Source: Planktothrix agardhii NIES-204
Lineage (GTDB): Bacteria > Cyanobacteriota > Cyanobacteriia > Cyanobacteriales > Microcoleaceae
Direction: 5' to 3'
DNA length: 64,000 bases
Assembly (NCBI GenBank): GCA_003609755.1
Contig: AP017991.1
Span: 186,001 to 250,000 of the forward strand
The first letter of the stretch is position 1. Every line of letters starts with the position of its first letter. Both the position numbers and the translations under genes were made by a program. The notes beneath the pieces are model-generated. The model saw nothing but the letters and a program-made list of their open reading frames with translations, was not told where the DNA came from and did no database searches. Positions 45,663 through 63,830 of this stretch are shown here, piece after piece.

Positions 45663-46994
45663 GTGTTTGAGAAACTAACTGTACAGAGAGTAGACAATTA
45701 CTCCCCTATTGCTAGAATAGATGGGGTTAGTTCACACCAACCTCGCGACATAGTACAGAATATAACAATCGCAAAGACTTTCTACCCATTTTTCAATCCT
45801 CAGCAAAACACTGTGAATCCAAGCATTGAAGACTTAATCCAATCAGCGATCACTGATTTAGATGTGGGAAATCTGCGAGAAGCTGATCAGACAATCTCAC
45901 GAATTTTAGCACGAGATCCCGATCATGCTCAAACCTATAAAGTTTTAGGGGATTGGTATGAAGTTCAAGGACTATTCCCAGAAGCCATTTCTGCCTATAA
46001 ACAGGCAATTAAGTTACAACCAGATTTTGTAGAAGCCTATGCCTATTTAGCTCAAGTTTTACGAAATACAGGAGAGTTTGAGCCAGCCTTTTTCTGTTAT
46101 AAAAAAGCCCTAAATTTGCGTCCAACTTGGACAGAATTATATTTTCAATGGGGTCAGGCTTATTACTGGAGTGGGGATATTCCCAAGGCGATTCGATGCT
46201 ATCAAAAAACCTTAGAACAAAACCCCAATCATGTTAACTCCTATTTTACCTTAGCAATGGCTTATGGGCAGTTGGGAGATACAAAACGAGCTATTGCACT
46301 CTATCAAAGAGTGATTCATCTGCAACCAGATTTTGCTAATGCCTATAATAATTTAGGTTGTTTGTTATTTGGTATAAATGATTATGACGGGGCTTTAGAA
46401 GCCTGGGAAAAATCATTAATTTATAATGATAATGAAATAGAAAAATCATTAATTTATAATAATATTGGTCAAGTTTTTAATGCTCAAGGAAGAATTAAAG
46501 AGGCGATTAAATCCTATCATCAAGCCCTAAACATTAAAGATGATTTTCCTTTGGCTTATACCAATTTAGGCAAAATTCTCCAGCAACAAAATCAACATAA
46601 AAATGCAGTTTCCTACTTTGAAAAAGTTATTGAATTAGAACCAGAAAATATATTTGCCTATACCGACTGTGGAGCTTCTTTACTCAATTTAGGAAGACTG
46701 GATGCAGCGTTGAGTTGTTTCAAAAAAGTTATTGAGCTAGAACCTAAATTTGTAGAAGGTTACTGTCAAGGAGTACAGAAACGTTCGGAATTGGATGAAT
46801 TATCTTTAGCCAGAAAGTCCTGTGCTGATTTTCTCATAGCATTACAACAGGATGATACCCCCCCAACTCCCCCTTGCCAAGGGGGGCTAGGGGAAGTACA
46901 TCTGTCCCCCACCCTTACCAAGAGGGGGCTAGGGGGGGTAAAACGGTCTATGAACATCTCTATCAAACCTATCTTCACCTGGGAAATACTTTAA
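45663..46994 (+). CDS. TPR protein, N-terminal half of a split TPR-GT61 gene
   Basis: 443 residues from a GTG start. After a 70-residue lead, about nine TPR units of 34 residues run to about residue 385 (AISAYKQAIKLQPDFVEAYAY and similar). The frame then enters a C/G-rich repeat at 46858, reads PPTPPCQGGLGE and SPTLTKRGLGG, and stops after about 20 unrelated residues. The missing continuation is the next entry, one frame over. Adding one C to the C7 tract at 46858-46864 would make a single 991-residue protein. It is either a pseudogene half, a phase-variable gene or a sequencing slip. Confidence 0.75.
   Translation: MFEKLTVQRVDNYSPIARIDGVSSHQPRDIVQNITIAKTFYPFFNPQQNTVNPSIEDLIQSAITDLDVGNLREADQTISRILARDPDHAQTYKVLGDWYEVQGLFPEAISAYKQAIKLQPDFVEAYAYLAQVLRNTGEFEPAFFCYKKALNLRPTWTELYFQWGQAYYWSGDIPKAIRCYQKTLEQNPNHVNSYFTLAMAYGQLGDTKRAIALYQRVIHLQPDFANAYNNLGCLLFGINDYDGALEAWEKSLIYNDNEIEKSLIYNNIGQVFNAQGRIKEAIKSYHQALNIKDDFPLAYTNLGKILQQQNQHKNAVSYFEKVIELEPENIFAYTDCGASLLNLGRLDAALSCFKKVIELEPKFVEGYCQGVQKRSELDELSLARKSCADFLIALQQDDTPPTPPCQGGLGEVHLSPTLTKRGLGGVKRSMNISIKPIFTWEIL
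46858..46941. repeat. C/G-rich repeat pair at the break of the TPR-GT61 gene
   Basis: Two tandem units: CCCCCC(C)AACTCCCCCTTGCCAAGGGGGGCTAG... and CCCCCACCCTTACCAAGAGGGGGCTAGGGGGGG, each with a C-rich arm and a G-rich arm able to fold. It begins with a C7 homopolymer. It belongs to the family present at 11174, 43637, 9324 and 13344. Confidence 0.75.
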
Positions 46995-48637
46995 CGATTT
47001 ACGGCAAGTTTGATCAAGCAGTGAGCTACTACCAAAAAGCAACACAAATTCAACCCTATTCAGTAGAAATTTATCTAAAATTAGGCAATTGTTTATTCAA
47101 AAATCAACAACTAAATGCGGCTTTAACGATTTATCAAATCGCTCTAAATCTACTCAAAAACGAGTCTATTTTTTCCCATATTCAGTTACTTGAAGTGAAT
47201 TTGCAATTGGGGAGAATATTGGAAAAACAAGGATATTGGGAATCTGCTGCGGACTACTATAGTCAAGTTTTACAGACTCAGCAGGAAAAGGAGTTTAATT
47301 CTTGGGTCAATGACCATCCCTCAATCTTAACTTTATGGCAAGAATGGGCAAATGCTCCCTATATTCAACAGACGGATATTCCTGAAGGAGTGTGTGATTC
47401 AACCCTAACCTGGCTGACCAATAATAATTTACAGGATAGCCATTATTGTAATCTATCAGGATTATGCGGTTCGCAAAACTTGGATAACTGGAAACAGACA
47501 CCCTCTAAACCGAATCAATGTGGGGGGTTAGATTGTGAAATCTGTCTCAAAAATGTGTTCAAATGCTTTCATTGGCAGAATTTGGGACAGGGAATTCAAA
47601 AAGGTTTGACATCCAAAAATAATACAGTTTCAACGCCTTTGTTTGTGGCGATAATTCCTAATGGACGAGCCTGGATTGTTCCCCAACAGAATTATTGGAT
47701 GGTTTGCAAAGCGATCGCTATTATTACACCTGATAATCAACTATTAGCCGATGTCTCAAGGGAATATCCCGCCCCCCTTCCGGGTTGTCCCAGTTATGAC
47801 CCACAACAGCATCAAGTTTTTCAACAGTCAGAATTACCGCCCCTAGAGACCATTGAAGGTCGGGTCGTAGTATTATCGGGGCTGTCGGGGAATGTCTATT
47901 TTCATTGGATGGTGGATGTTTTACCGAGATTGGAATTATTGCGCCAAAGTGGGATAAATTTTGATCAAATAGATTGGTTTTTAGTCAATAGTTACCAAGC
48001 ACCCTTTCAACGGGAAACCCTAACTCGCTTAGGAATTCCAGAGTTTAAAATCCTCGAAAGTGATCAATTTCCCCATATTCAGGCACAACAGCTAATTGTT
48101 CCCTCCTTTGCTGGACATACAGGATGGTTGCAACCCTGGGCAATTGATACTTTGCGCCGTTGGTTTCTCCCTAAAAGCTCAAATTCGGGTAAGAATTATC
48201 CCGAACGAATTTATATTAGTCGGGGAGATGCCAGCTATCGTCGGGTTTTAAATGAGGATGAAGTAATTCAATTCTTACGTCCTTGGGGCTTTGTGACCGT
48301 GCAACTTGAAACCCTATCCTTTACGGAACAGGTGGCTTTGTTTGCTGAAGCTAAGGTAATTATGGGGGCCCATGGTAGCGGTTTAACCAATATTCTGTTT
48401 TGTCAACCCGGAACCCAAGTAATTGAGTTTATGTCCCCCCACTATAATCGTCATTATTATTGGGTAATTAGTCAATATCTGGGATTAGAACATTATTGTT
48501 TGACTGGAGATGGGTTTGCTTGCTATCCGCTACGGGGGTTAATGTATCAAAATCCCCTGACCGAAGATATTTGGCTGAATCTGGTTTCTTTGAAAAGGCT
48601 ATTAGAAATACTGTTTGTCCGATCACCGTGGAAATAA
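46874..48637 (+). CDS. TPR plus glycosyltransferase family 61 (DUF563), C-terminal half of split gene
   Basis: 587 residues from a TTG located inside the repeat, not a convincing start. Residues from about 25 resume TPR sequence (HLGNTLTIYGKFDQAVSYYQKA), then a Cys-rich linker (CGGLDCEICLKNVFKC), then the GT61 domain from about 300. That domain has GNVYFHWMVDVLPRLELL, FDQIDWFLVN, ERIYISRGDASYRRVLNE and VIMGAHGSGLTNILFCQPG, the family hallmarks. GT61 enzymes transfer pentoses, hexoses or GlcNAc onto glycans or proteins. The catalytic domain looks intact, so the gene is probably recently split or only conditionally out of frame. Confidence 0.8.
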   Translation: MPRGARGSTSVPHPYQEGARGGKTVYEHLYQTYLHLGNTLTIYGKFDQAVSYYQKATQIQPYSVEIYLKLGNCLFKNQQLNAALTIYQIALNLLKNESIFSHIQLLEVNLQLGRILEKQGYWESAADYYSQVLQTQQEKEFNSWVNDHPSILTLWQEWANAPYIQQTDIPEGVCDSTLTWLTNNNLQDSHYCNLSGLCGSQNLDNWKQTPSKPNQCGGLDCEICLKNVFKCFHWQNLGQGIQKGLTSKNNTVSTPLFVAIIPNGRAWIVPQQNYWMVCKAIAIITPDNQLLADVSREYPAPLPGCPSYDPQQHQVFQQSELPPLETIEGRVVVLSGLSGNVYFHWMVDVLPRLELLRQSGINFDQIDWFLVNSYQAPFQRETLTRLGIPEFKILESDQFPHIQAQQLIVPSFAGHTGWLQPWAIDTLRRWFLPKSSNSGKNYPERIYISRGDASYRRVLNEDEVIQFLRPWGFVTVQLETLSFTEQVALFAEAKVIMGAHGSGLTNILFCQPGTQVIEFMSPHYNRHYYWVISQYLGLEHYCLTGDGFACYPLRGLMYQNPLTEDIWLNLVSLKRLLEILFVRSPWK

Positions 48638-51339: not shown

Positions 51340-51384
51340 CGTAGTGAGGTGTTCACGCCTCATAGCCCTAAAGGGCTTACTACG
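51340..51384. repeat. CGTAGT palindromic repeat, copy 2, inside the TPR-GT2 linker
   Basis: CGTAGT/ACTACG outer arms with nested GAGG/CCTC and AGCCCT-AA-AGGGCT stems. It encodes IRSEVFTPHSPKGLTTK between YQAWLKYNT and FKYQPLISI, where the paralogue at 53479 has an ordinary linker. It keeps the frame and also supplies the only GTG start of the separate GT2 frame. Confidence 0.75.
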
Positions 51385-53385
51385 AAAGATTTCAAATATC
51401 AACCCCTGATTAGTATTATTATGCCCGTTTATAACACCCCGGAAGCGTTTCTAAGCGAAGCAATTCAATCGGTGTTAGATCAGGTTTATACTAATTGGGA
51501 ATTGTGTATTGCGGATGATGCTTCGACGGCTTCCCATGTCAAACAGATATTAGAAGAATATCAACAGCAAGATAGCCGAATCAAAGTGGTTTTTAGAACT
51601 AAAAACGGTCATATTTCTGTAACTTCTAATTCTGCTTTAGAGTTAGCAACGGGAGAATTTATCGGGTTATTAGACCATGATGATGTTTTGACTCCTGATG
51701 CTTTATATGAAGTGGTGAGTTTATTAAATCAGAATCCCGTCGCGGATATGATTTATTCCGATGAAGATAAACTAAATGAAAAAGGAGAATTAACAGGTCA
51801 TTTCTTTAAACCAGATTGGTGTCCTGATTCCTTTTTGTCCCGGATGTATACTTGCCATTTCGGAGTTTATCGACGAGAAATTATCAACCAAATTGGAGGA
51901 TTTAGAACCGGATATGAAGGCAGTCAGGATTATGATTTAGTCTTGAGATTTACGGAAAAAACCGATAAGATTTTTCATATTCCTAAAATCCTCTATCATT
52001 GGCGGATTCATAGCAGTTCAGCCGCTGGAGGAACAGAAGCGAAACCCTATGCTTATGAAGCCGCGAAACGGGTGTTAAAAGATGCAATTGACCGCAGAGG
52101 AGAACCCGGAATTGTTAAAGATGTTCCGATTTATTTAGGACATTATCAAATCCGCTATAAAATTTTAGATTACAAGCGGGTGAGTATTATTATTCCGACT
52201 AAAGATTTAGGAAAAATCTTAAATCGCTGTTTGGAATCTATCTTTACTCTGAGCATTTATCCCGATTATGAAGTTATTGTCATTGATAATGGCAGTACGG
52301 AATCAGCAACCCAGGATATTTTAGAGAAATGGCAAGAAAAGGAACCGAATCGGTTTAGATATTATGCTTTAGATATTCCTTTCAATTTTTCTAAGATTAA
52401 TAACTATGCCGTTAGTAAAGCCACCGGGGATTATTTGCTATTCTTAAATAATGATACCGAAGTCATTCATCCTGATTGGATTGATGCGATGGTAGAACAG
52501 GCACAACGGCCTTCTATTGGTGCGGTGGGTGCGTTATTAAGGTATCCTGATAAAATCGTTCAACACGCTGGTGTTGTGGTGGGAATTGGTCATTTTGCCG
52601 CCCATAGTCACCGCATGGCATCGGAAACAGACCCCGGATATTATGGTCAAATTATTTCTATTAGTAATTATTCGGCGGTGACGGCGGCTTGTTTGATGTG
52701 TCGGCGAGAAATATTTACACAGGTGGGAGGGTTTGATGAACAGTTAGCAGTGGCTTATAATGATGTTGATTTCTGCTTGAAAATCGTTGAACAAGGGTAT
52801 AGGAATATTTATTTACCCCATGTTGTTTTATATCATTATGAATCAAAAAGTCGGGGTTATGATACAACTCCAGATAAGTTACAACGATTTATGCAGGAAG
52901 TGACGATTACACGGCAAAAATGGCAACGTTATGTTGATCACGATCCCTGTTATAATCCTAATTTAACCTTATCTGCTTCTGATTATAGTTTAAGGCAATT
53001 TTCTGAAGTAGAAATTAGTAAGATTGCCTTAGATTTTGATCATAACAAATTACAAGATTGTTCAATTGATCAACCAGAAATTGGAATTTATTATGGAATT
53101 AGTCAAATTTGTTTTAAAGGTTGGGTACTGGGACAGCAGGAGAAAATAACCGCAGTTCAAATTATTGGTAATTATGGCCAAGTAATTAAGGAAATTCCGA
53201 CCAATTTCCCCCGTGCTGATGTTCATTTACTGCATCCTGAAAACCTAAATTCAGAGTTTTGTGGATTTTGCGAAACAATTGAACTCAGAAATTTGTCTGA
53301 AGCAACAGAATTGTTATTCCAAGCTGTTCTAAACAACGAAACTTATGCTAAATTTGCAAAAGTAAAACTAGAAATCAACCATTAA
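51349..53385 (+). CDS. Tandem GT2 glycosyltransferase with C-terminal accessory domain
   Basis: 678 residues as a separate frame from a GTG inside a repeat; more likely the C-terminal part of a TPR-GT2 fusion. Two GT-A domains lie in tandem. The first spans residues 21-260 (SIIMPVYNTP, ADDAST, LDHDD at 108-112). The second spans 278-530 (SIIIPTKDLG, VIDNGST, LNNDTEV, GFDEQLAVAYNDVDFCLK). The C-terminal residues 585-678 form the GW...PRADV...CGF module shared with two other enzymes here. It probably transfers two sugars onto a surface glycan or lipid. The catalytic Asp residues are intact in both domains. Confidence 0.88.
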   Translation: MFTPHSPKGLTTKDFKYQPLISIIMPVYNTPEAFLSEAIQSVLDQVYTNWELCIADDASTASHVKQILEEYQQQDSRIKVVFRTKNGHISVTSNSALELATGEFIGLLDHDDVLTPDALYEVVSLLNQNPVADMIYSDEDKLNEKGELTGHFFKPDWCPDSFLSRMYTCHFGVYRREIINQIGGFRTGYEGSQDYDLVLRFTEKTDKIFHIPKILYHWRIHSSSAAGGTEAKPYAYEAAKRVLKDAIDRRGEPGIVKDVPIYLGHYQIRYKILDYKRVSIIIPTKDLGKILNRCLESIFTLSIYPDYEVIVIDNGSTESATQDILEKWQEKEPNRFRYYALDIPFNFSKINNYAVSKATGDYLLFLNNDTEVIHPDWIDAMVEQAQRPSIGAVGALLRYPDKIVQHAGVVVGIGHFAAHSHRMASETDPGYYGQIISISNYSAVTAACLMCRREIFTQVGGFDEQLAVAYNDVDFCLKIVEQGYRNIYLPHVVLYHYESKSRGYDTTPDKLQRFMQEVTITRQKWQRYVDHDPCYNPNLTLSASDYSLRQFSEVEISKIALDFDHNKLQDCSIDQPEIGIYYGISQICFKGWVLGQQEKITAVQIIGNYGQVIKEIPTNFPRADVHLLHPENLNSEFCGFCETIELRNLSEATELLFQAVLNNETYAKFAKVKLEINH

Positions 53386-53478: not shown

Positions 53479-56400
53479 ATGCTATCTAAATCCAACACCT
53501 TCAAAACATCTACAGATTTACTAGAAGAAGCCAATAAACTGAAACAATCGGGTCAATTGCAAGCTGCCATTATTGCTTATCGTAGAGCAGCACAATTAAG
53601 CCCTAATTTTCATTGGATTTATCATAATTTAGGAGAAGCATTAGCAGAAAATAATCAACTATTAGAGTCAATTCAGGCATTTCAGCGTGCCATTGAACTA
53701 AATCCTGATTCAGCTTGGTCACAATATCAATTAGCAGAAGTTTTATTGAAACTTGGAAATTTACCCGATACAATTAAGACGTTACAATGTGCGATCGCTA
53801 TCAATCCAAATGCTAACGAATTTTATAATAGTTTAGGTCAAGCTCTATTTAAACAAGGTGAATTAGAACAAGCAATTAGTTACTATCAAAAAGCTCTGGA
53901 ACTTAATTCAGAAGATGCGATCGCTTATCAATATTTAGGAGAAGCATTAGCACAACAGGGTCAACTGGATGAAGCAATAGAGTCCTGTCGCAAAGCGATT
54001 GATCTCAATCCCAATTTAGGAAATACTTATGAAATATTAGGGAAAATATTAGTTCAAAAAGGTTTGTTTGAAGAAGCCTTAAATATATTGTTAGAAGCCA
54101 TACAATTTAATCCTAAATCACCAGAAATATATCATGCACTGGGAGATGTTTATTCTCATTGTCAACATTTTAATCAAGCTATTGATGCCTATTCCCAAGC
54201 AATTCAAATCAAACCCAATGCAGCGATATTTCATCACGGTTTAGGTAATGTTTTTGCTCACCTAAATCAATGGGAAAATGCCGTTTCTGCTTATTCCCAA
54301 GCAATCGTATTAAATCCTGAATCAGCCGAATGTCATCAGAGTTTTGCCGAGGTTTTAGTTAAATTAGAACGATGGGACGCTGCGATCGCTTCCTATTCTA
54401 AAGCGTTAGAATTAAATCCTAATTTAACAAAGATTTATTCTCAGTTGGCAGATACCTTAAAGTACCGACAAACCCCAGGCGATTTACAAAAAGCAAACCA
54501 ATATTATGAAAAATCTATTGAATTTGATAGTGAAGATATTGAAGTATATCAAAATCTGTTAAAATCCCAGCCGGATAACTTAGATTTATGTTGGAAATAT
54601 GCTAATTTATTATGGAGTAAAAATCAGCGTGAACAAGCACTAATTTATTATAAAAAAGTTAAAGATGCTCAACCCCAAGACTTTGAAATATTACTAAAGT
54701 TGGGAGAAGCATTTGTCAGGATGAGTGAGTTTGAAGATGCGATCGCTACTTACCAAAAAGCCTTAGAAATTAACCCCAATTCATCGGATATTTACCATCG
54801 TTTAGGGGAACCTTTAGAAAAAATAGGTGAACTGGAAGCAGCCGCAAAAACCTACCAAAAAGCCATTGAATTAAACCCTGACTTTTTTGGTTCCTATCAC
54901 AATTTAGGAGATATTCGACAACGCCAAAAGAAATTTGAACAAGCGGTTTTATCTTATAAAAAAGCGATTGAATCAAATCCTGATTTTTACTGGTCTTATC
55001 ATAATTTAGCTGATACTTTAGAAAAACAAGGTAATTCAGAAGAAGCGATCGCAACTTACCGCAAATGCTTAGAAATTAACCCCCATTTCGGTTGGTCACA
55101 CTGTAACTTAGCAACCGCTTTAGCTAAACAAGGTAAAATAGAAGATTCTCTACATCATTATCGACGAGCATCCGAACTTGATCCCGCATTAGGAATTGAT
55201 TTTAATGGCTTAAAAACTGCACTTTTAGATAAAATTCTAGTTGAAGATTATATGTATAAACTCTGGCGAGACAAGAACTTTCCCAGAGCAGCAGATTTAA
55301 GAAAAATGGCAGAAACGATGGAATTATTCGTGCATAAACCCGTATTTAGCGTGATTATGCCTGTTTATAATACCCCAGAAGAATTTCTCAGGGAAGCCAT
55401 AGAATCTGTGATCAATCAAATTTATCCCTACTGGGAATTTTGTATTGCTGATGATGCTTCCCCCTCTCCCCATGTTAAGGAAGTTTTAGAAGAATATCAA
55501 GCTAAAGATTCCCGAATTAAAGTCATTTATAGAACAGAAAATGGTCATATTTCTGCATCCTCTAACTCCGCCTTAGAATTAGCAACAGGAGAATTTATTA
55601 CCTTGCTGGATCATGATGATTTAATTACTCCCGATGGTTTATATGAAGTGGCTTTATTATTGAATCGGAATCCTGATTTAGATATGATTTATTCCGATGA
55701 AGATAAAATTAGTCCCAATGGTAACTTAATTAATCCTTACTTCAAACCAGAATGGTGTCCTGAATCCTTTTTGTCTCGGATGTACACCTGCCATTTAGGA
55801 ACCTACCGACGTTCTATTATAGAAGAAATTGGAGGTTTTAGAATCGGTTATGAAGGCGCTCAAGATTATGATTTAGTCTTGAGATTTACCGAAAAAACTC
55901 AAAAAATTGCCCATATTCCCAAAGTTTTATATCACTGGCGCATGCACTCCGGTTCCACCGCAGGAGGAAGCGAAGCTAAACCCTATGCTTATGAAGCATC
56001 AGAAAAAGCAATTCAGGATGCTGTAGATAGACGGGGAGAAACAGGAATAGTAACAGGAGTTCCAGGGTTTTTAGGACATCATTTAGTCCGTTATGAAATT
56101 ACAGATTATAAGAAGGTTAGCATCATTATTCCAACAAGAGATTTAGGGGAAGTATTAGACCGATGTTTAGAGTCTATTTTTACTCTAACAACCTATCCTA
56201 ACTATGAAGTGATTGTGATTGATAATGGTAGCGTTCAAGACTATACATTTAAAGTGTTTTCTAAGTGGAGTTCTCAGGAATCTTCACGGTTTAAATGTTA
56301 TCCTTTAGATATTCCCTTTAACTTCTCCACCATTAATAATTATGGAGTCAGTCAAGCAACGGGAGATTATTTACTATTCTTAAATAACGATACCGAAGTG

Positions 56401-56946
56401 CTTAATCCTGACTGGATAAATGCGATGGTAGAACAAGTCCAACGTCCTCAAATTGGTGCGGTAGGAGCGTTATTATTATTCCCAGATAATACGATTCAAC
56501 ACGCCGGAGTTGTCATGGGATTAGGGGGTGTTGCCGGGCATGGATATTATGCTATGTCTTCTGATATCCCTGGATATTTTGGCAATGTTATTGGGTTTAA
56601 TAATGTTTCTGCGGTTACAGGAGCTTGTTTGATGTGTCGGCGAGAAGTATTTGAAAAAATAGGGGGGTTTGATGAACAGTTAACGGTGGCTTATAATGAT
56701 GTGGATTTGTGTTTGAAAATGCTAGATAAAGGCTATCGAAATTTGTACTTACCTCATGTTACACTTTATCATCATGAATCTAAAAGTCGAGGTTATGAAG
56801 ATACACCGGAAAAGAAAGAACGTCTAAACCGAGAATCAAAAATTATTGCCGGACGTTGGAAAAAGTATATTGATAATGATCCTTGTTATAGTCCTCACTT
56901 GACAAGAGTTTGTCAGAACTTTAGTATTAAAGTGCAGGATAATTAG
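53479..56946 (+). CDS. TPR-array / tandem GT2 glycosyltransferase fusion (intact)
   Basis: 1155 residues. About fifteen TPR units span residues 10-575. After a linker with YKLWRDKNFPRAADLRKMAET, two GT2 domains follow: about 620-860 (SVIMPVYNTP, ADDASP, LDHDD) and about 880-1140 (SIIIPTRDLG, VIDNGSV, LNNDTEV, GFDEQLTVAYNDVDLCLK). It is the intact equivalent of the split pair just upstream, with very similar GT2 sequence, so the two arose by duplication. TPR arrays on such enzymes may position protein or glycan acceptors. It lacks the C-terminal accessory module of its neighbour. Confidence 0.92.
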   Translation: MLSKSNTFKTSTDLLEEANKLKQSGQLQAAIIAYRRAAQLSPNFHWIYHNLGEALAENNQLLESIQAFQRAIELNPDSAWSQYQLAEVLLKLGNLPDTIKTLQCAIAINPNANEFYNSLGQALFKQGELEQAISYYQKALELNSEDAIAYQYLGEALAQQGQLDEAIESCRKAIDLNPNLGNTYEILGKILVQKGLFEEALNILLEAIQFNPKSPEIYHALGDVYSHCQHFNQAIDAYSQAIQIKPNAAIFHHGLGNVFAHLNQWENAVSAYSQAIVLNPESAECHQSFAEVLVKLERWDAAIASYSKALELNPNLTKIYSQLADTLKYRQTPGDLQKANQYYEKSIEFDSEDIEVYQNLLKSQPDNLDLCWKYANLLWSKNQREQALIYYKKVKDAQPQDFEILLKLGEAFVRMSEFEDAIATYQKALEINPNSSDIYHRLGEPLEKIGELEAAAKTYQKAIELNPDFFGSYHNLGDIRQRQKKFEQAVLSYKKAIESNPDFYWSYHNLADTLEKQGNSEEAIATYRKCLEINPHFGWSHCNLATALAKQGKIEDSLHHYRRASELDPALGIDFNGLKTALLDKILVEDYMYKLWRDKNFPRAADLRKMAETMELFVHKPVFSVIMPVYNTPEEFLREAIESVINQIYPYWEFCIADDASPSPHVKEVLEEYQAKDSRIKVIYRTENGHISASSNSALELATGEFITLLDHDDLITPDGLYEVALLLNRNPDLDMIYSDEDKISPNGNLINPYFKPEWCPESFLSRMYTCHLGTYRRSIIEEIGGFRIGYEGAQDYDLVLRFTEKTQKIAHIPKVLYHWRMHSGSTAGGSEAKPYAYEASEKAIQDAVDRRGETGIVTGVPGFLGHHLVRYEITDYKKVSIIIPTRDLGEVLDRCLESIFTLTTYPNYEVIVIDNGSVQDYTFKVFSKWSSQESSRFKCYPLDIPFNFSTINNYGVSQATGDYLLFLNNDTEVLNPDWINAMVEQVQRPQIGAVGALLLFPDNTIQHAGVVMGLGGVAGHGYYAMSSDIPGYFGNVIGFNNVSAVTGACLMCRREVFEKIGGFDEQLTVAYNDVDLCLKMLDKGYRNLYLPHVTLYHHESKSRGYEDTPEKKERLNRESKIIAGRWKKYIDNDPCYSPHLTRVCQNFSIKVQDN

Positions 56947-58066: not shown

Positions 58067-61000
58067 TCAAGCTGTAATGTATTTATATTGTTCAATCATT
58101 GCTGATAATAAATGTTGATCAAATTTTTCTTTTGGCTGTAGAACAACTAAAGTATCTGCACTTTCAATAGGATCAAAAAACTTCAACACATCATGATAAG
58201 GTGGACGATCCCAAAAATCGTGCATAATTACTTTAGTAGTTGTGTTGATATGAGATAAAGATTGTAATGCACAAGCGACTCGAAATCGACCATCAATAAA
58301 CACAAGATTAATGGGATCGGGTACTTTCTTCCAAATATCTGAGTAATACCTTGGCCAGTTTTCTTGAGAAGATTGATCGCGCGGATAACCCCAAGCACCA
58401 ACAGGCCCAATATTGATATGAAAAAACTGAACTAAACTATTTTCCACTGCTTTCTGAATCCTGTCATACTCTTGCAGTTTGTTGATAAAGTCGAAATCGC
58501 TTTCCACACTGTAGAGTTGTTTAACTCCGGTTTTGATTGCTAAACCTGTGCTCCCTCCGGCTCCAAACTCAATAACAACTTTTTGTCCCTGAAGATATTT
58601 TGTAAACAGTTTAACTTCAGCCTCTGACATTCGGGGAGTTGGAAGTTGAACATCTTTAGCGGATGTTGTTGTTGCTTGCGCTGTTGAAATTTGAATTTGA
58701 GGTGATGGAGGTTGTAGAACATTAACCCAGATAGCAGAATTCGTCTTAGACACCTGTTGGAATAATATTTCTTGTGCTGAACTCACTTCCTGAATAAAGA
58801 CAGATTGTTCTTGAGTATTTTGCCAAGGAAAGCGATAGGTCGGTTCTTTATTCAGGGATTCCAAAACTTTTGCATTTTTTCTACGTTCAGTTTGATTAGA
58901 ATGGGATTTAGATTTTTGAGTCATTAACCCTTGATTAATAGCTGGATAAAGCCCATAAATGGGTAAAGGTAGGGAATCGATCACAGCAGAAAATCTCATG
59001 AAACGTTGAGTCCATTCGGCATGACCAAACCCATATCCTTTAAATCGACTATCTAAGTAACCAACACAATTGAGAGCGTGTCTTGAAGATGTTGTACATT
59101 GTCCAGTCGTTACCTTGAGCAAATCGGGAGAAGTCGGCATTCCACCACTTTCTTTATAAATATCATGAGGACGCTTCTCTAAGATCCAGGGTGCTGCATA
59201 GTTAACATGATGCCAAATAGCGGTTGTCTCTAACCAAGCTAATTCCCATCCCTTTTCTATGGGAAAGCAGTCGTCCTCCAGTAGCATAATACAGTTTGCA
59301 TCTGTATACTCTTTTAAGGCATACAAAGCTCGATTTTTATTCCAACACACTCCTCGATTCTGACCTGTAAGAACTACCAAACCTTCTGATCGACACCATT
59401 CCACTGTGCCATCGGTACTTCCATCATCAGCAATTACAAGATAATAGGGGCTTGTTGTGTATTTTCTAATGCTTTCTACACATTTTTTGAGATGTTTCAG
59501 CCGATTATAGGTAATTACCCCAATTCCTAATCGATTTGTGGTTGCTTGTGATATAGTCTCCTGATTTCTTGCTTTGTTTTCCAGAGTTTTAAACGTTGTA
59601 AGACATTTTTCCTTGATTACCTCCTGATAATTAGGTACTTGCTTCAAAGATGCGCCTCTTGATACGTTTGCTCTAGGAAAAGGTTTTTTGGGTATCTCTT
59701 TACCCAAGAATGCACATAGTTTATCCCAGCCATCTCCTTCACAAATATTTAGAATCAGAAGGTCAGCTTCTCTGTGTTTGAAATATTCCTTAACATCTTC
59801 TAGGTGCTGGTCATATTTTTGGGAAAAAATATCTTCGTCATATTCGTCAACACCAGTCTGCTCAATCCGATATTTATACTGTATAGAATTCTGCTGTTTA
59901 GCCTTATGCCGAAAATGATTCATACAGGAGTTTAACCAACTTTTTTTATCCCGCACACTTAGAATAAATTTAGATCCTGGATATTGGATATCATATTCTT
60001 GATATCGAGTCTGGATCGGCATATCACTCAGGAATTCATGAGCAGGAATATCTTTGTCTGGTTCTAACAGATAATGCTTCGTTTTGTATCCAAGAACTTT
60101 CATGGCTACAGTCAAAGATGTTGTCCCTGTCTTTGATAATCCGATACAAAACACCTTATGATTTTTTGAGATTGGGTGATTGACTTCTTTCATGTTTTCT
60201 GTATTAAATATTATTGAATTTGAAGCCGACTCAATAGCAGATTTCAAAACTGGCACAAAACGTTGGATTGTTAAATCTTCTATTTGATTTTGATCATATT
60301 TTTCAAAGACAGCAAATTGTTTTTTTGTCCCATTGCCAGCACCTCTGTTTGATTTGATCCGAAACTCTTCCCTTGACTTCGTTAAATAGTGATTAATTCG
60401 GAGTTTTTTGACGGAAGTATGAGAAGTTTGTGGGCCAACAAAAACTTGGTGATTTTCTGTAACAGCTTGCTGATCATCTACATAAATAAAATGATGAGGA
60501 GTCGCCGATCTGATGGTTTGGGTCGGACGAATAATTGATTTCATCCGGCCATTATGGAGGATCAAGGCTTCATCCTCTAGGGGTCTTCGGGTAAAATTTT
60601 CCGTAACTAACCCTTTGGGTTTAGTGATGTGACCCGAACTCCCAAAACACAACCAATTCACTCCGATACCTGGATATTCCTTATATTCTTCTAATACTTT
60701 TTTTAAGTCATCTGCTTCTGAAGGGAATAAAAACTCATCTAAATCAATGAAAGCGATCCATTCGGATTCTTCTCGGTGGTGTTTTAGACAGTGGTTATAA
60801 CTCGAATTTTGACCCCCTTGTTCTGGCCATTCATGCCAAACAATTTCACCTCGGTCTATGTACGGCTTAACCTTTTCAAAAATATTATCGGTGCTATTAT
60901 TATCGTAAAGATAAAATCTTTCGACTCCGACTATTTTATGGAACTCTAACCATTCAATAATGTAAAGCCCTTCATCTTTGAGAATGGCACAAATACTGAG

Positions 61001-62521
61001 TTGGCATTTCGGTCTATCATTTAGAGGTTGGATAGCATTGGTTTGGGTTTTGGGGAATTCCGTTTGGATCTGTTGAAGTTGAGACGGAGATTGCTTCAGT
61101 TCAGCTTCGGTTTGGTGTAATTGCAGATGAGTTTCTTCTAACTCAGCTAGAACTTCATCAAATTGAGATTGCGATCGCTGTAATTCTTCTTTTGTTTCTT
61201 GCAGTTCTGAACAAGTTTTTGCCAAGTCTTGCTGCATTTTTTCTAACTCAACTTGGACAAATGTTAATTGTTCTGATTGCTGTTCAAACTTGATTTTTAA
61301 CTGCTCTAGTTCTTCGTTTAACTCAGTTTTTAAGTTCAATTGTCTTTTTAAATTAAGTGATTTTTCAGATATTGACAAAGCCTCGGCGGGCAAATTATCT
61401 AAACCGTTTTTATGCAAGTTATAAAAAAAATTATAAACTTTTATGTCAACCCCGTTATAATCATTAAGAAAGTCTACAAACTTACTATTGTTTAGGAGTT
61501 CTTTCTTATTTAAAGCTGGTTTTGAATTGATATTTTCTCGATTAACGATAGGTTCTATGATATCTTCTAAACCAATCAGGCTAACATATTTTTTAATAAA
61601 TTGACTATAATCCTCTGTTAATCCTACCAAATCAAAGTTTAATAAATTTTCTATAATTGCATCAGCATTATTGGAATCCGTTTTAAAATAACTAGATTGA
61701 GCATTCAATAACCATTTATTTTCTAGTAAAAAATCAATCACCTCAAGGGGGTTGGTTAAATCCCTTTCACAGAGGTTATATCCCATTTTTTTTATATGAT
61801 CTGGATGAGATTGATAAAATCTTGAGTTGTGATCGAACTGATGAATATAAGCCAGCCAATTTACATGGGAGATAATTTGATCAAAAGGGTTTCTGAGTAG
61901 AGTGACTAATAAATATTGATCTCGTTCAAAATTTTTATTAAAATACTGAATACCCAAATGGCCAGAAACAAAATCCCAGCTTTTTAGGATATCTAAATTT
62001 TTAAATTCCCAGGGTTGACTCGATTGTCGGTAGGATTCACAATGACTATTTCCATGTAAATAGGTATGTAAAAATTTATTAAATGAACTTCCTGCCGTTT
62101 TAGCAACATGGACAAAAAACGTTTTCTTTTTAGGGCTACGGAAAGAATATTGAGATAATTTTAGGTCAGCCAATGAAATTCTTTGAAAATTTTCCAAAAC
62201 AGCTTGAATCAAAATCTCTCCCGACTCTAAATTAATTTTTTCTAAGGCGAGATCAATCACAAAGCCACTGTGTTCAGCACCCGGAAAAGTTGCATAAATT
62301 TTAGCAGCACGAGGACGATGAATTGTTACAGGTGCGTACCCTACTAACTGACCATCTTGAATTAATTCAACACCAACTACAGGTGATTCTATTCCAATCA
62401 CCCAACCGGATAATTTTAGATGTTCTTCTATTGTTTGTGGAACCGGATCAAAGTCAAATTTACAAAATTTATCAGCTTCTTCTATGTTTTTATTAAGATT
62501 AACTTTTGTCAGTAATTTCAT
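58067..62521 (-). CDS. Giant multidomain glycan enzyme: accessory module, sulfotransferase, coiled coil, GT92-like, sulfotransferase, GT2, methyltransferase-like
   Basis: 1484 residues without interruption. Order: accessory module 35-125 (GW 39-40, RPR 69-71, SGF 85-87). Sulfotransferase 1, about 133-375, with PAPS loop KTAGSSF (141-147) and 3'-phosphate site LLRNPFDQIISHV. Coiled coil about 385-490 (Glu/Gln/Leu heptads). GT92/DUF23-like domain 505-760 (CAILKDEGLYIIEWLEFH, DLDEF at 593-597). Sulfotransferase 2, about 788-945, with LSKTGTTSL (795-803) and SVRDKKSWL. GT2 about 998-1200 (ADDGSTDGT, LEDDC). Class I methyltransferase-like fold 1295-1484 (VIEFGAGGSTG, VFIDGR). Each domain keeps key motifs, so it could add two sugars and sulfate them. 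Acceptor unknown; presumably cytoplasmic, as no signal or membrane segment is seen. Confidence 0.9.
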   Translation of the reverse strand: MKLLTKVNLNKNIEEADKFCKFDFDPVPQTIEEHLKLSGWVIGIESPVVGVELIQDGQLVGYAPVTIHRPRAAKIYATFPGAEHSGFVIDLALEKINLESGEILIQAVLENFQRISLADLKLSQYSFRSPKKKTFFVHVAKTAGSSFNKFLHTYLHGNSHCESYRQSSQPWEFKNLDILKSWDFVSGHLGIQYFNKNFERDQYLLVTLLRNPFDQIISHVNWLAYIHQFDHNSRFYQSHPDHIKKMGYNLCERDLTNPLEVIDFLLENKWLLNAQSSYFKTDSNNADAIIENLLNFDLVGLTEDYSQFIKKYVSLIGLEDIIEPIVNRENINSKPALNKKELLNNSKFVDFLNDYNGVDIKVYNFFYNLHKNGLDNLPAEALSISEKSLNLKRQLNLKTELNEELEQLKIKFEQQSEQLTFVQVELEKMQQDLAKTCSELQETKEELQRSQSQFDEVLAELEETHLQLHQTEAELKQSPSQLQQIQTEFPKTQTNAIQPLNDRPKCQLSICAILKDEGLYIIEWLEFHKIVGVERFYLYDNNSTDNIFEKVKPYIDRGEIVWHEWPEQGGQNSSYNHCLKHHREESEWIAFIDLDEFLFPSEADDLKKVLEEYKEYPGIGVNWLCFGSSGHITKPKGLVTENFTRRPLEDEALILHNGRMKSIIRPTQTIRSATPHHFIYVDDQQAVTENHQVFVGPQTSHTSVKKLRINHYLTKSREEFRIKSNRGAGNGTKKQFAVFEKYDQNQIEDLTIQRFVPVLKSAIESASNSIIFNTENMKEVNHPISKNHKVFCIGLSKTGTTSLTVAMKVLGYKTKHYLLEPDKDIPAHEFLSDMPIQTRYQEYDIQYPGSKFILSVRDKKSWLNSCMNHFRHKAKQQNSIQYKYRIEQTGVDEYDEDIFSQKYDQHLEDVKEYFKHREADLLILNICEGDGWDKLCAFLGKEIPKKPFPRANVSRGASLKQVPNYQEVIKEKCLTTFKTLENKARNQETISQATTNRLGIGVITYNRLKHLKKCVESIRKYTTSPYYLVIADDGSTDGTVEWCRSEGLVVLTGQNRGVCWNKNRALYALKEYTDANCIMLLEDDCFPIEKGWELAWLETTAIWHHVNYAAPWILEKRPHDIYKESGGMPTSPDLLKVTTGQCTTSSRHALNCVGYLDSRFKGYGFGHAEWTQRFMRFSAVIDSLPLPIYGLYPAINQGLMTQKSKSHSNQTERRKNAKVLESLNKEPTYRFPWQNTQEQSVFIQEVSSAQEILFQQVSKTNSAIWVNVLQPPSPQIQISTAQATTTSAKDVQLPTPRMSEAEVKLFTKYLQGQKVVIEFGAGGSTGLAIKTGVKQLYSVESDFDFINKLQEYDRIQKAVENSLVQFFHINIGPVGAWGYPRDQSSQENWPRYYSDIWKKVPDPINLVFIDGRFRVACALQSLSHINTTTKVIMHDFWDRPPYHDVLKFFDPIESADTLVVLQPKEKFDQHLLSAMIEQYKYITA

Positions 62522-62576: not shown

Positions 62577-63830
62577 ATGAACAGTGTATTGATCAACAAT
62601 GACCTAACTTCAGCAAACTATTTTGACCAAGCTAACAGACTAAGGCAACTGAACCAACTTCAAGAAGCGGTTATTGCTTACCGTGATGCCATAACCGAAA
62701 AACCCAATTTTTCCTGGTATCACCATAACTTGGGGGAAACCCTGGCTCAACTGGGTCAGGTAGAGGAGGCGATCGCCAGTTACCAAAAGGCCTGCGAACT
62801 CAACCCCAACTCGGCTTGGTCTTACTATAACCTAGGTGAACTCCTAGAGCAAGAGGGTAGAATCACGGAAGCAACGGAGGCCTATCGTCGGGCGGTGGAA
62901 CTGAATCCTGATTTTTATGAGTTTCAGCAGAGTCTCGGAAAACTACTCTGCCAACAGGGACAGTTTGCCCAAGCCATTAGTTCCCTAGAAAAAGCAATTG
63001 AACTCGAACCCGATGCCACTGCCTGTTATCAATATCTGTGGGATGCCTTTGCTCAACAGGGACAGGGACGCGAAGGCATAGCCTATTTACACAAAGCGGT
63101 GACGGCAACTCCCAACAGTGGGGAACTCCATCAGCAGTTAGCCGAAGCGTTAAAGGCTAATAATCAAATTCAGGAAGCGATCGCTTCTTACAAAAATGTA
63201 ATTCAGATTAACCCCAAATCCGCTTGGAGTTATTATCAGTTGGGGATGATTTGCCGAGATCAAGGTCAATATCAAGAAGCGATCGCTTACTACCGCAAAG
63301 CCACGGAATATGACCCCAAATCGGCCATTTATTATCATTTCCTGGGACATACCCTATCCCTGGTTCATCATTGGGAAGAAGCGATCGCAGCTTACAAGAA
63401 AGCCCTAGATCTCGCACCGACTTCAGCGATTATTTATCAACATTTGGGGGATGCGTTATCGACGTTACAGCGTTGGGAACAGGCGGCCACGGCTTACCGG
63501 AAATCCGTAGATTTGGAACCCCATTCCCTAGAAGCGCAAGATCATCTAGGGTTTGCCCTGGCCCAACTCCAACGCTGGGATGATGCGATTTTAGCCTATC
63601 GTCGGGCCTTAGATGTGAGCTTATCTGATGTCGTATATTTGCATTTAGGGGATGCCCTCGAACAACGTTCCCATGTTCAACCGATAGACAAAGATGCTCG
63701 TAACGATCTCGAAGATGCAGTTAATTGTTATCGTCAAGCCCTGGAATTAAATCCCAATCCAGAAGCTATTGACCAGAAATTAAATCATGCTCTATCCCAA
63801 CTCAATCAGGCTTCTAAATTAAGGAATTAA
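62577..63830 (+). CDS. TPR-repeat protein
   Basis: 417 residues, about eleven TPR units and nothing else. Its first 190 residues are paralogous to the start of the TPR-GT2 protein at 53479 (QANRLRQLNQLQEAVIAYR, FSWYHHNLGETLAQLGQVEEAIASYQKA). No transferase domain follows; it ends naturally and is closed by a strong terminator. It is divergent from the giant enzyme across only 55 bases, so the two probably share a promoter region and function. GC content is higher than in the other TPR genes of the cluster. It may be the scaffold partner of the giant enzyme. Confidence 0.88.
   Translation: MNSVLINNDLTSANYFDQANRLRQLNQLQEAVIAYRDAITEKPNFSWYHHNLGETLAQLGQVEEAIASYQKACELNPNSAWSYYNLGELLEQEGRITEATEAYRRAVELNPDFYEFQQSLGKLLCQQGQFAQAISSLEKAIELEPDATACYQYLWDAFAQQGQGREGIAYLHKAVTATPNSGELHQQLAEALKANNQIQEAIASYKNVIQINPKSAWSYYQLGMICRDQGQYQEAIAYYRKATEYDPKSAIYYHFLGHTLSLVHHWEEAIAAYKKALDLAPTSAIIYQHLGDALSTLQRWEQAATAYRKSVDLEPHSLEAQDHLGFALAQLQRWDDAILAYRRALDVSLSDVVYLHLGDALEQRSHVQPIDKDARNDLEDAVNCYRQALELNPNPEAIDQKLNHALSQLNQASKLRN

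What the first reader, a model, noticed from the sequence alone, without database searches (positions are those of the whole stretch)
58067..62521. 1484-residue enzyme joining two sulfotransferases, two glycosyltransferases and a methyltransferase-like domain
Seen directly: one uninterrupted frame with, in order, an accessory module, a PAPS sulfotransferase (KTAGSSF), a coiled coil, a GT92-like domain (DLDEF), a second and different sulfotransferase (LSKTGTTSL), a GT2 domain and a methyltransferase-like fold. Known: each family works on glycans in other organisms. Inference: one chain builds and sulfates a glycan segment, an assembly-line arrangement I do not know to have been described. Sulfated cyanobacterial polysaccharides exist but their enzymes are mostly separate genes.
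Basis: partly seen in the sequence, partly recalled or inferred. Interest (0 to 1): 0.85.

Follow-up and report, generated by a model that had tools for sequence, protein, structure and literature searches.

The report
Swappable five-enzyme sugar-sulfating fusion protein
A bloom-forming cyanobacterium (Planktothrix) carries one giant gene that welds two sulfate-adding, two sugar-adding and one methyltransferase-like unit into one protein, at a spot in the genome where its relatives carry different sets of such units, which suggests a quick way to change the chemistry of the cell coat.

Summary
Profile or structure-database searches clearly recover GT92, Sulfotransfer_4, GT2 and a 3cvo-related methyltransferase-like module; the N-terminal Sulfotransfer_2 is weak but supported. 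Sulfotransferase, GT92 and methyltransferase-like motifs are present. dN/dS is 0.19-0.25 in the four catalytic modules with a close relative (one 40-codon GT2 piece: 0.39). No other genome searched shows the full architecture (61 family genomes held; overlapping samples of 388 in the order, 386 in the phylum).

The main new result is the locus. It lies beside a conserved TPR gene in 10 of 10 held Planktothrix genomes, with six occupant types. A genome labelled the same species matches the outer flanks mostly at 97-100%, but inside the gene shares only the first 124 codons and a ~100-base coiled-coil patch. Alignment ends against four genomes fall at module borders.

Best reading: a cytoplasmic fused enzyme that makes and sulfates part of a surface glycan, at an exchangeable glycan locus. 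Substrate, product and channelling are untested. Both AlphaFold models were too poor to use.

The parts
58067..62521 (-). whole fused gene, 1484 aa (P0001)
62150..62521 (-). residues 1-124, accessory module 'acc' (no Pfam family); head shared by five of ten Planktothrix genomes, own included
61391..62146 (-). residues 126-377, Sulfotransfer_2-type sulfotransferase; K141TAGSSF, R210NP...S218
61055..61369 (-). residues ~385-489, coiled coil in one heptad register
61111..61241 (-). coiled-coil DNA patch found at 74-87% inside the slot gene of six of nine other Planktothrix genomes (over 98-131 bases)
60227..61015 (-). residues 503-765, GT92 glycosyltransferase; D593-L-D595-E596
59642..60166 (-). 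residues 786-960, Sulfotransfer_4; GLSKTGTTSL 794-803, D833, R857...S865
58736..59545 (-). residues 993-1262, GT2 glycosyltransferase
   Evidence: relative at 48-49% in G390
58070..58648 (-). residues 1292-1484, methyltransferase-like module related to PDB 3cvo; E1318FGAGG, D1410GRFR
62577..63830 (+). TPR gene (417 aa), conserved edge of the slot, divergent; 55 bp between the two start codons
57045..58019 (+). 324-aa methyltransferase-domain gene, other edge of the slot, convergent
53479..56946 (+). neighbouring TPR-GT2-GT2 gene
51349..53385 (+). neighbouring GT2-GT2 gene
46874..48637 (+). neighbouring TPR-GT61 gene

Best explanation
This is a cytoplasmic multi-enzyme for a surface polysaccharide, formed by in-frame fusion and exchange of gene-sized modules at a variable glycan locus of Planktothrix. 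The two glycosyltransferase modules (GT92 and GT2) would each add a sugar to a growing glycan. The two PAPS sulfotransferase modules would sulfate different positions of that segment. The C-terminal module would use SAM or bind the glycan. The coiled coil would make the chain dimerise or recruit partners, and the N-terminal accessory module would bind or dock. Shown here: the frame, the modules and their motifs, low dN/dS in the catalytic modules that could be compared, and module-wise difference between genomes at one chromosomal slot. Inferred: that all modules are active, that they act on the same glycan, that the product is a sulfated surface polysaccharide, and that exchange changes the cell coat.
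For: Modules and motifs. dN/dS: Sulfotransfer_2 0.245 against G426; Sulfotransfer_4 0.207, GT2 0.215 (241 codons) and methyltransferase-like 0.189 against G425. Glycan setting: GT61, GT2-GT2, TPR-GT2-GT2 and methyltransferase-domain genes alongside. APS kinase, which makes PAPS, in the genome (8.4e-64). No membrane-like stretch (highest 19-residue hydropathy mean 1.19). Separate genes side by side in G394. One place on an E. coli plasmid record matches the GT92 and GT2 modules in separate neighbouring genes (H1). Slot: beside the TPR gene in 10 of 10 Planktothrix genomes, six occupant types. Alignment ends at module borders against G255, G423, G425, G426.
Against: No product, substrate or expression data. 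Sulfotransfer_2 is barely over its cut-off; its relative in G394 has no Pfam match at 0.001 and lacks the 3'-motif arginine, so some copies may be inactive. One 40-codon GT2 piece has dN/dS 0.39, and GT92 has no relative close enough (28% identity, dS 1.95 to G426). The closest relative of the C-terminal half (G425, a MAG 73% complete) has a two-base scaffold gap and stops in the matched frames. The GT92 tree's scatter of the Planktothrix label is not beyond shuffled labels (85 of 500 shuffles as low). No exporter or polymerase among the nine neighbours scanned (at most 25 families shown per protein). Both AlphaFold models were poor.
Confidence: 0.6

Rival explanations
1. Molecular-ruler terminator and polymerase in one chain, like WbbB or the Klebsiella O7 ORF6: the C-terminal GTs polymerise, the N-terminal sulfotransferase caps the chain with sulfate, and the ~105-residue coiled coil sets the distance and so the chain length.
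For: Terminator, coiled coil, two GT modules in one chain is a published layout; cyanobacterial orthologues of ORF6-O7 and an Ig-like possible CBM are mentioned there (passages of PMC11231755). One heptad register over ~105 residues. In Aeromonas salmonicida a WbbB gene lies next to a separate sulfotransferase-domain gene, though no sulfate is known in that O-antigen (passages of PMC4483657).
Against: At the same slot the coiled coil is not kept between a terminator and a polymerase: in G425, G255 and G423 it directly follows the accessory module; in G157, G424 and G427 it is at the C-terminal end. Here a second sulfotransferase sits between the GT modules. No ABC exporter among the nine neighbours scanned; the rest of the genome was not searched for one.
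Confidence: 0.15
2. The fusion is largely accidental: modules were stacked by recombination, some are decayed, and the chain works as one or two of its parts.
For: Variable module sets at the slot; weak Sulfotransfer_2 score; motif loss in the G394 copy; gap and stops in G425.
Against: A 1484-codon frame without stops; dN/dS 0.19-0.25 in the four comparable catalytic modules; sulfotransferase and GT92 motifs present.
Confidence: 0.15
3. The target is not a polysaccharide but a protein glycan, glycolipid or small glycosylated metabolite decorated by the same chemistry.
For: The best solved relatives of the Sulfotransfer_4 module include oxamniquine-resistance sulfotransferases (that these act on a small molecule is recalled). 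Most of the 20 listed of 31 papers that name both Planktothrix and a sulfotransferase are about toxins or peptides (listing).
Against: Neighbours scanned are TPR, glycosyltransferase and methyltransferase-domain genes on the cluster side, with no peptide synthetase among them. In G255 and G423 genes that read like nucleotide-sugar genes lie next to the slot gene (named from recall, not scanned).
Confidence: 0.08

Closest known systems
Synechan (xss) cluster of Synechocystis PCC 6803
   Same: two sulfotransferases of distinct subfamilies together with eight glycosyltransferase genes for one sulfated exopolysaccharide (passages of PMC8205485)
   Different: there each enzyme is a separate gene, with Wzx/Wzy genes in the cluster; here five catalytic modules are one chain, and no export gene was seen among the nine neighbours scanned
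wps-1 cluster of Actinoplanes missouriensis
   Same: two sulfotransferases of different families, a GT2 and a SAM methyltransferase in one glycan cluster (passages of PMC13390465)
   Different: separate genes
WbbB, WbdD and Klebsiella O7 ORF6 (coiled-coil O-antigen terminators/polymerases)
   Same: large chain with an N-terminal modifying enzyme, a coiled coil and C-terminal GT modules (passages of PMC11231755)
   Different: there the terminators are a Kdo-transferase or a methyltransferase with or without a kinase; here sulfotransferases, and the coiled coil is not kept in that place in the other slot genes
Capsule and O-antigen loci with conserved flanks and exchangeable genes
   Same: conserved flanks, variable glycan genes between them (recalled; a paper on plug-and-play Klebsiella capsule loci, PMC13043062, was seen only in a listing with the start of its abstract)
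   Different: here the break falls inside a reading frame, so one gene keeps its 5' end and differs in its catalytic modules
Plant galactan synthase (PDB 8d3t, GT92 by recall)
   Same: aligns with the DxD region of the GT92 module
   Different: eukaryotic; the match covers about 100 residues only

Membership tests
Sulfotransfer_2 (PF03567) | score over Pfam gathering cut-off | tested here: met
   24.6 bits against 22 with the domain cut out; 24 bits in the genome scan; not listed in the whole-protein scan
Sulfotransfer_2 (PF03567) | PAPS motifs: K in the 5' loop, R and S eight apart in the 3' motif (motif meaning recalled) | tested here: met
   K141TAGSSF, R210...S218; K and S invariant in seven of seven rows, R in six
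Sulfotransfer_2 (PF03567) | sulfotransferase fold | tested here: inconclusive
   single-sequence AlphaFold model, mean pLDDT 34.5
Sulfotransfer_4 (PF17784) | profile score and both PAPS motifs | tested here: met
   110.3 bits against 22.8; GLSKTGTTSL, R857...S865; D833 aligned with the TDLP aspartate of solved relatives (its role as base is recalled)
Glycosyltransferase family 92 | profile score and DxD region | tested here: met
   104.7 bits against 23; D593, D595, E596 invariant in ten of ten rows, own included
Glycosyltransferase family 2 | profile score | tested here: met
   50.1 bits against 23.3, covering positions 3-94 of 168
3cvo-like methyltransferase fold | sequence relation to 3cvo and glycine-rich loop | tested here: met
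   E 1.9e-17; EFGAGGST in three of three rows, own included
3cvo-like methyltransferase fold | methyl transfer | not testable with these tools
   3cvo itself is named 'of unknown function'
WbbB/WbdD coiled-coil terminator | terminator and polymerase separated by the coiled coil, kept in the genes at the same slot | tested here: not met
   coiled coil directly behind acc in G425, G255, G423 and at the C-terminal end in G157, G424, G427
WbbB/WbdD coiled-coil terminator | ABC exporter (Wzm/Wzt) | not tested
   none among the nine neighbours scanned; genome not searched
Synechan-type sulfated EPS cluster | two different sulfotransferases with GTs | tested here: met
   in one chain
Synechan-type sulfated EPS cluster | Wzx/Wzy export genes in the cluster | tested here: inconclusive
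   none among the nine neighbours scanned

The most novel reading that the evidence does not exclude
The slot is a cassette-exchange site for glyco-enzymes working inside one reading frame: a constant start region (55-bp intergenic, 124-codon head) and a shared coiled-coil seam let incoming DNA swap whole sets of catalytic modules, so that a strain changes the sulfation and linkage of its coat in one recombination event, for example under phage or grazer pressure.
Probability: 0.3. Interest if true: 0.78.

Novelty: new variant of a known kind. Interest (0 to 1): 0.58.

Why it matters
In the papers whose passages I saw, the enzymes of bacterial sulfated glycans are separate genes. A single chain with two sulfotransferases and two glycosyltransferases gives a compact object for testing how sulfation is coupled to chain growth, and possibly a tool enzyme. 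The exchange slot makes a further question testable: whether bloom-forming cyanobacteria diversify their coats by swapping enzyme modules within one gene rather than whole genes.

Tried and rejected
Rejected: that the frame is a chance open frame. Rejected: that the full architecture is common. No full-length match among 61 held family genomes (28 with any match at E 1e-12), 388 sampled of the order (41 with a match at 1e-30) or 386 sampled of the phylum (42 with a match at 1e-30), the window's own genome apart; the three sets overlap, and only up to 9 or 2 candidate stretches per genome were scored in full. Of 203 plasmid records and 188 phage records with a match, none covers 80% of the query at one place. 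The one genome-contig scan gave Planktothrix sp. UBA8402 and two weak relatives.

Led nowhere: AlphaFold on residues 1-377 (mean pLDDT 34.5) and on residues 770-1484 with three rows (38.5); no fold search was run on them. Viral-contig scans with A1, P0001 and A2 found no relative; with the GT92 alignment 11 loci, not used further. Promoter scan near chance (19 found, shuffled mean 16.4) and one terminator-like site (shuffled mean 2.9). NCBIfam matches of this protein were all below the curated cut-offs.

Literature: nine searches listed no title or abstract start that names this architecture or locus; only part of the matching papers was listed (20 of 31, 20 of 23, 20 of 33, 12 of 68). I saw passages of PMC8205485, PMC11231755, PMC4483657 and PMC13390465 and only listings of the others.

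Full report
OBSERVATION. The stretch 58067-62521 holds one open frame of 1,484 codons on the minus strand. With Pfam the whole protein gives Sulfotransfer_4 (7.7e-29), GT92 (5.3e-28), GT2 (1.2e-19) and Glyco_tranf_2_4 over the GT92 part (5.5e-16). Cut into six pieces, the stretch behind the accessory module gives Sulfotransfer_2 at 24.6 bits, just over the cut-off of 22. Because that is weak I tested it further. Its relatives in G426 and G394 share the loop KTAG[ST]SF. In a seven-row alignment with four other proteins found by the Sulfotransfer_2 profile in two Planktothrix genomes, the lysine and the 3'-motif serine are kept in seven of seven rows and the arginine in six; the G394 copy has lost it. 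Profile against profile the two groups match at 97.7% probability, E 2.3e-12. A profile of all seven finds bile salt sulfotransferases (2.8e-5 for the best) and heparan sulfate 2-O-sulfotransferase (1.2e-3) among solved structures; a search with the single sequence found no sulfotransferase. The C-terminal part matches 3cvo, a methyltransferase-like structure of unknown function, at 1.9e-17; EFGAGGST and DGRFR are kept in three of three rows, own included. In the GT92 part D593, D595 and E596 are kept in ten of ten rows, own included. A profile of it finds a plant galactan synthase at 1e-7. The Sulfotransfer_4 profile finds solved sulfotransferases at 2.5e-26.

HOST. The window lies in a 5.08-Mb genome, contig C1:186001-250000. 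A contig that carries the nearest relative of the C-terminal half is titled Planktothrix sp. UBA8402 and is the same sequence as G425, which the search labels 'same genus'. So the host is taken to be Planktothrix.

THE SLOT. Ten Planktothrix genomes are held, own included. In ten of ten the gene, or its place, lies beside the TPR gene of 62577-63830 (70-95% identity of its product in the others). In eight of ten the 324-aa methyltransferase-domain gene or a near copy is on the other side (in G255 a 67% copy, in G425 only its last 36 codons before the contig ends); in G423 it was not in the fetched stretch, and G428 has a different 230-aa gene there. Between these edges I see six kinds of occupant: (a) own: acc, Sulfotransfer_2, coiled coil, GT92, Sulfotransfer_4, GT2, 3cvo-like; (b) G426: acc, Sulfotransfer_2, coiled coil, a distant GT92, methyltransferase domains; (c) G425: acc, coiled coil, Sulfotransfer_4, an insert, GT2, 3cvo-like, with an assembly gap and stops; (d) G255 and G423: acc, coiled coil, TPR and a long C-terminal part without Pfam match; (e) G157, G424, G427: FkbM methyltransferase, GT11, GT92 (cut short in G424), and the coiled coil at the end; (f) G262 and G428: a 1,157-aa protein (TPR and methyltransferase domain in G262; the G428 one begins alike and was not scanned) and a 333-aa protein. 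The acc module in G157 and G424 rests on weak matches (25-31% identity).

BREAKPOINTS. G255 carries the label 'same species'. By DNA the own window matches it at 97-100% in most 200-base blocks between 48.8 and 56.4 kb (several drop to 83-96%), at 92-95% in 56.4-56.8 kb and at 64-79% from there through the methyltransferase gene. On the other side it matches at 100% from 63.3 kb on and at 80-97% between 62.2 and 63.3 kb. In between, only the first 124 codons and a ~100-base coiled-coil patch (61111-61209) match. The interval is about 4.2 kb here and 10.6 kb in G255. The blastn ends fall at 62150 or 62153 (end of acc) against G255, G423 and G425, at 61372 (end of the first sulfotransferase) against G426, and at 60157 (start of Sulfotransfer_4) against G425. 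These are module borders, to the accuracy of alignment ends. Synonymous divergence differs along one gene pair: against G425 dS is 0.26 in acc, 0.81 in the coiled coil, 0.74 in Sulfotransfer_4, 0.63 in GT2 (0.83 in its 40-codon second piece) and 0.52 in the methyltransferase-like module. That fits separate histories, though acc may also be held by its place next to the shared edge.

SELECTION. dN/dS is 0.245 for Sulfotransfer_2 against G426, and 0.207 (Sulfotransfer_4), 0.215 (GT2, 241 codons), 0.390 (GT2, 40-codon piece) and 0.189 (methyltransferase-like, 117 codons) against G425. It is 0.28-0.44 for acc in four comparisons and 0.16-0.26 for the coiled coil. GT92 has only G426 to compare, at 28% identity and dS 1.95, too far to be of use (0.38).

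GT92 TREE. The tree of 23 GT92 modules needs three changes of the Planktothrix label, and its starred branches force three: G157 and G427 group together, own and G426 elsewhere. But 85 of 500 shuffles need as few, and long branches (G426 above all) make places unsure.

THE COILED-COIL PATCH. A DNA search with the 170-base patch finds matches in nine of ten Planktothrix genomes at E 1e-3, own included. In six of the nine others (G157, G424, G427, G425, G255, G423) the best match lies inside the slot gene, at 74-87%. G262 has a 57-base match in the slot interval but outside the frames listed there, G426's only match is 29 bases elsewhere (its slot gene has a related coiled coil at protein level), and G428 has none. 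Weaker copies lie elsewhere in several genomes, own included. It may serve as a seam for recombination, but that is inference.

RARITY. Sulfotransfer_4 is found in 25 of 61 family genomes (22 over the cut-off); in the rows listed only P0001 (1,499-residue open frame) and G425 (803) have it in a frame over 650 residues. In the phylum sample 39 of 386 genomes have it; apart from P0001 the longest frame listed is 710, with a partial match. The first 377 residues of P0001 have matches at 1e-5 in 7 of 386 genomes, own included; none of the others reaches beyond position 173, so they are acc matches and not the sulfotransferase.

FUNCTION. The genome has an APS kinase for making PAPS. The protein has no membrane-like stretch. 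The neighbours on one side are TPR, glycosyltransferase and methyltransferase-domain genes. In G394, another genus of the family, an acc-Sulfotransfer_2 gene (no Pfam match at 0.001), an 818-aa gene with methyltransferase domains and a part 29% like the 3cvo-like module, a GT92 gene and a second, distant GT92-like gene lie next to each other. That is what one expects if the fused modules work in one pathway. Two published glycan clusters have two sulfotransferases of different families as separate genes (passages of PMC8205485, and PMC13390465). I therefore hold that the chain makes and sulfates part of a surface glycan. That the modules work in the order in which they stand is not supported, because the other slot genes change that order.

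THE RULER RIVAL. Coiled coils in WbbB, WbdD and Klebsiella O7 ORF6 hold a chain terminator away from the polymerase (passages of PMC11231755). P0001 has such a layout, but the other slot genes do not keep it. I give this 15%.

LIMITS. The held collection has one genome per species apart from the window's own, so frequency of exchange within a species rests on one pair. Both structure predictions were too poor to use. The order and phylum searches were samples, several genomes are fragmented drafts, and only up to 9 or 2 candidate stretches per genome were scored (the last column of their tables), so a distant full-length relative could be missed.

VERDICT. New variant of a known kind.

Noticed in passing
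L156:1483-2841, L157:1474-3144, L159:1495-2973: Other Sulfotransfer_2 proteins in two Planktothrix genomes also look like mosaics: coiled coil-acc-sulfotransferase, TPR-sulfotransferase, and sulfotransferase followed by two acc-like modules (module names partly read by eye).
   Followed up: partly
window 51349-53385 and 53479-56946: The GT2-GT2 gene and the GT2-GT2 half of the TPR gene are related paralogues: each matches the other's counterpart in G255 at about 73% DNA identity.
   Followed up: no
L083:8156-13624: G394 has acc-sulfotransferase, methyltransferase-domain, GT92 and distant GT92-like genes in a row, an unfused counterpart.
   Followed up: partly
L078:1773-2182: In the G425 relative an insert between Sulfotransfer_4 and GT2 holds two copies of a repeat of the form NPxxYxxxxxxLxxxxGxDLxxAxxHYxxxGY (read).
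   Followed up: no
L144-L154; records H21-H26: GT92 relatives occur in 11 viral-contig loci and in Synechococcus phage records.
   Followed up: no
family f31 genomes: Small genomes of about 2 Mb in another family of the phylum carry GT92 and 3cvo-like relatives, mostly in short single frames.
   Followed up: no
G255 C1, positions 13007-20656 of L071 followed by L074: Behind the slot gene of the same-species genome lie a second, TPR-like gene and a row of genes that read like nucleotide-sugar genes, turned the other way (not scanned with profiles).
   Followed up: no
L094:9730-9786: A 57-base remnant-like match to the coiled-coil patch lies in the slot of G262 just outside its open frames.
   Followed up: no
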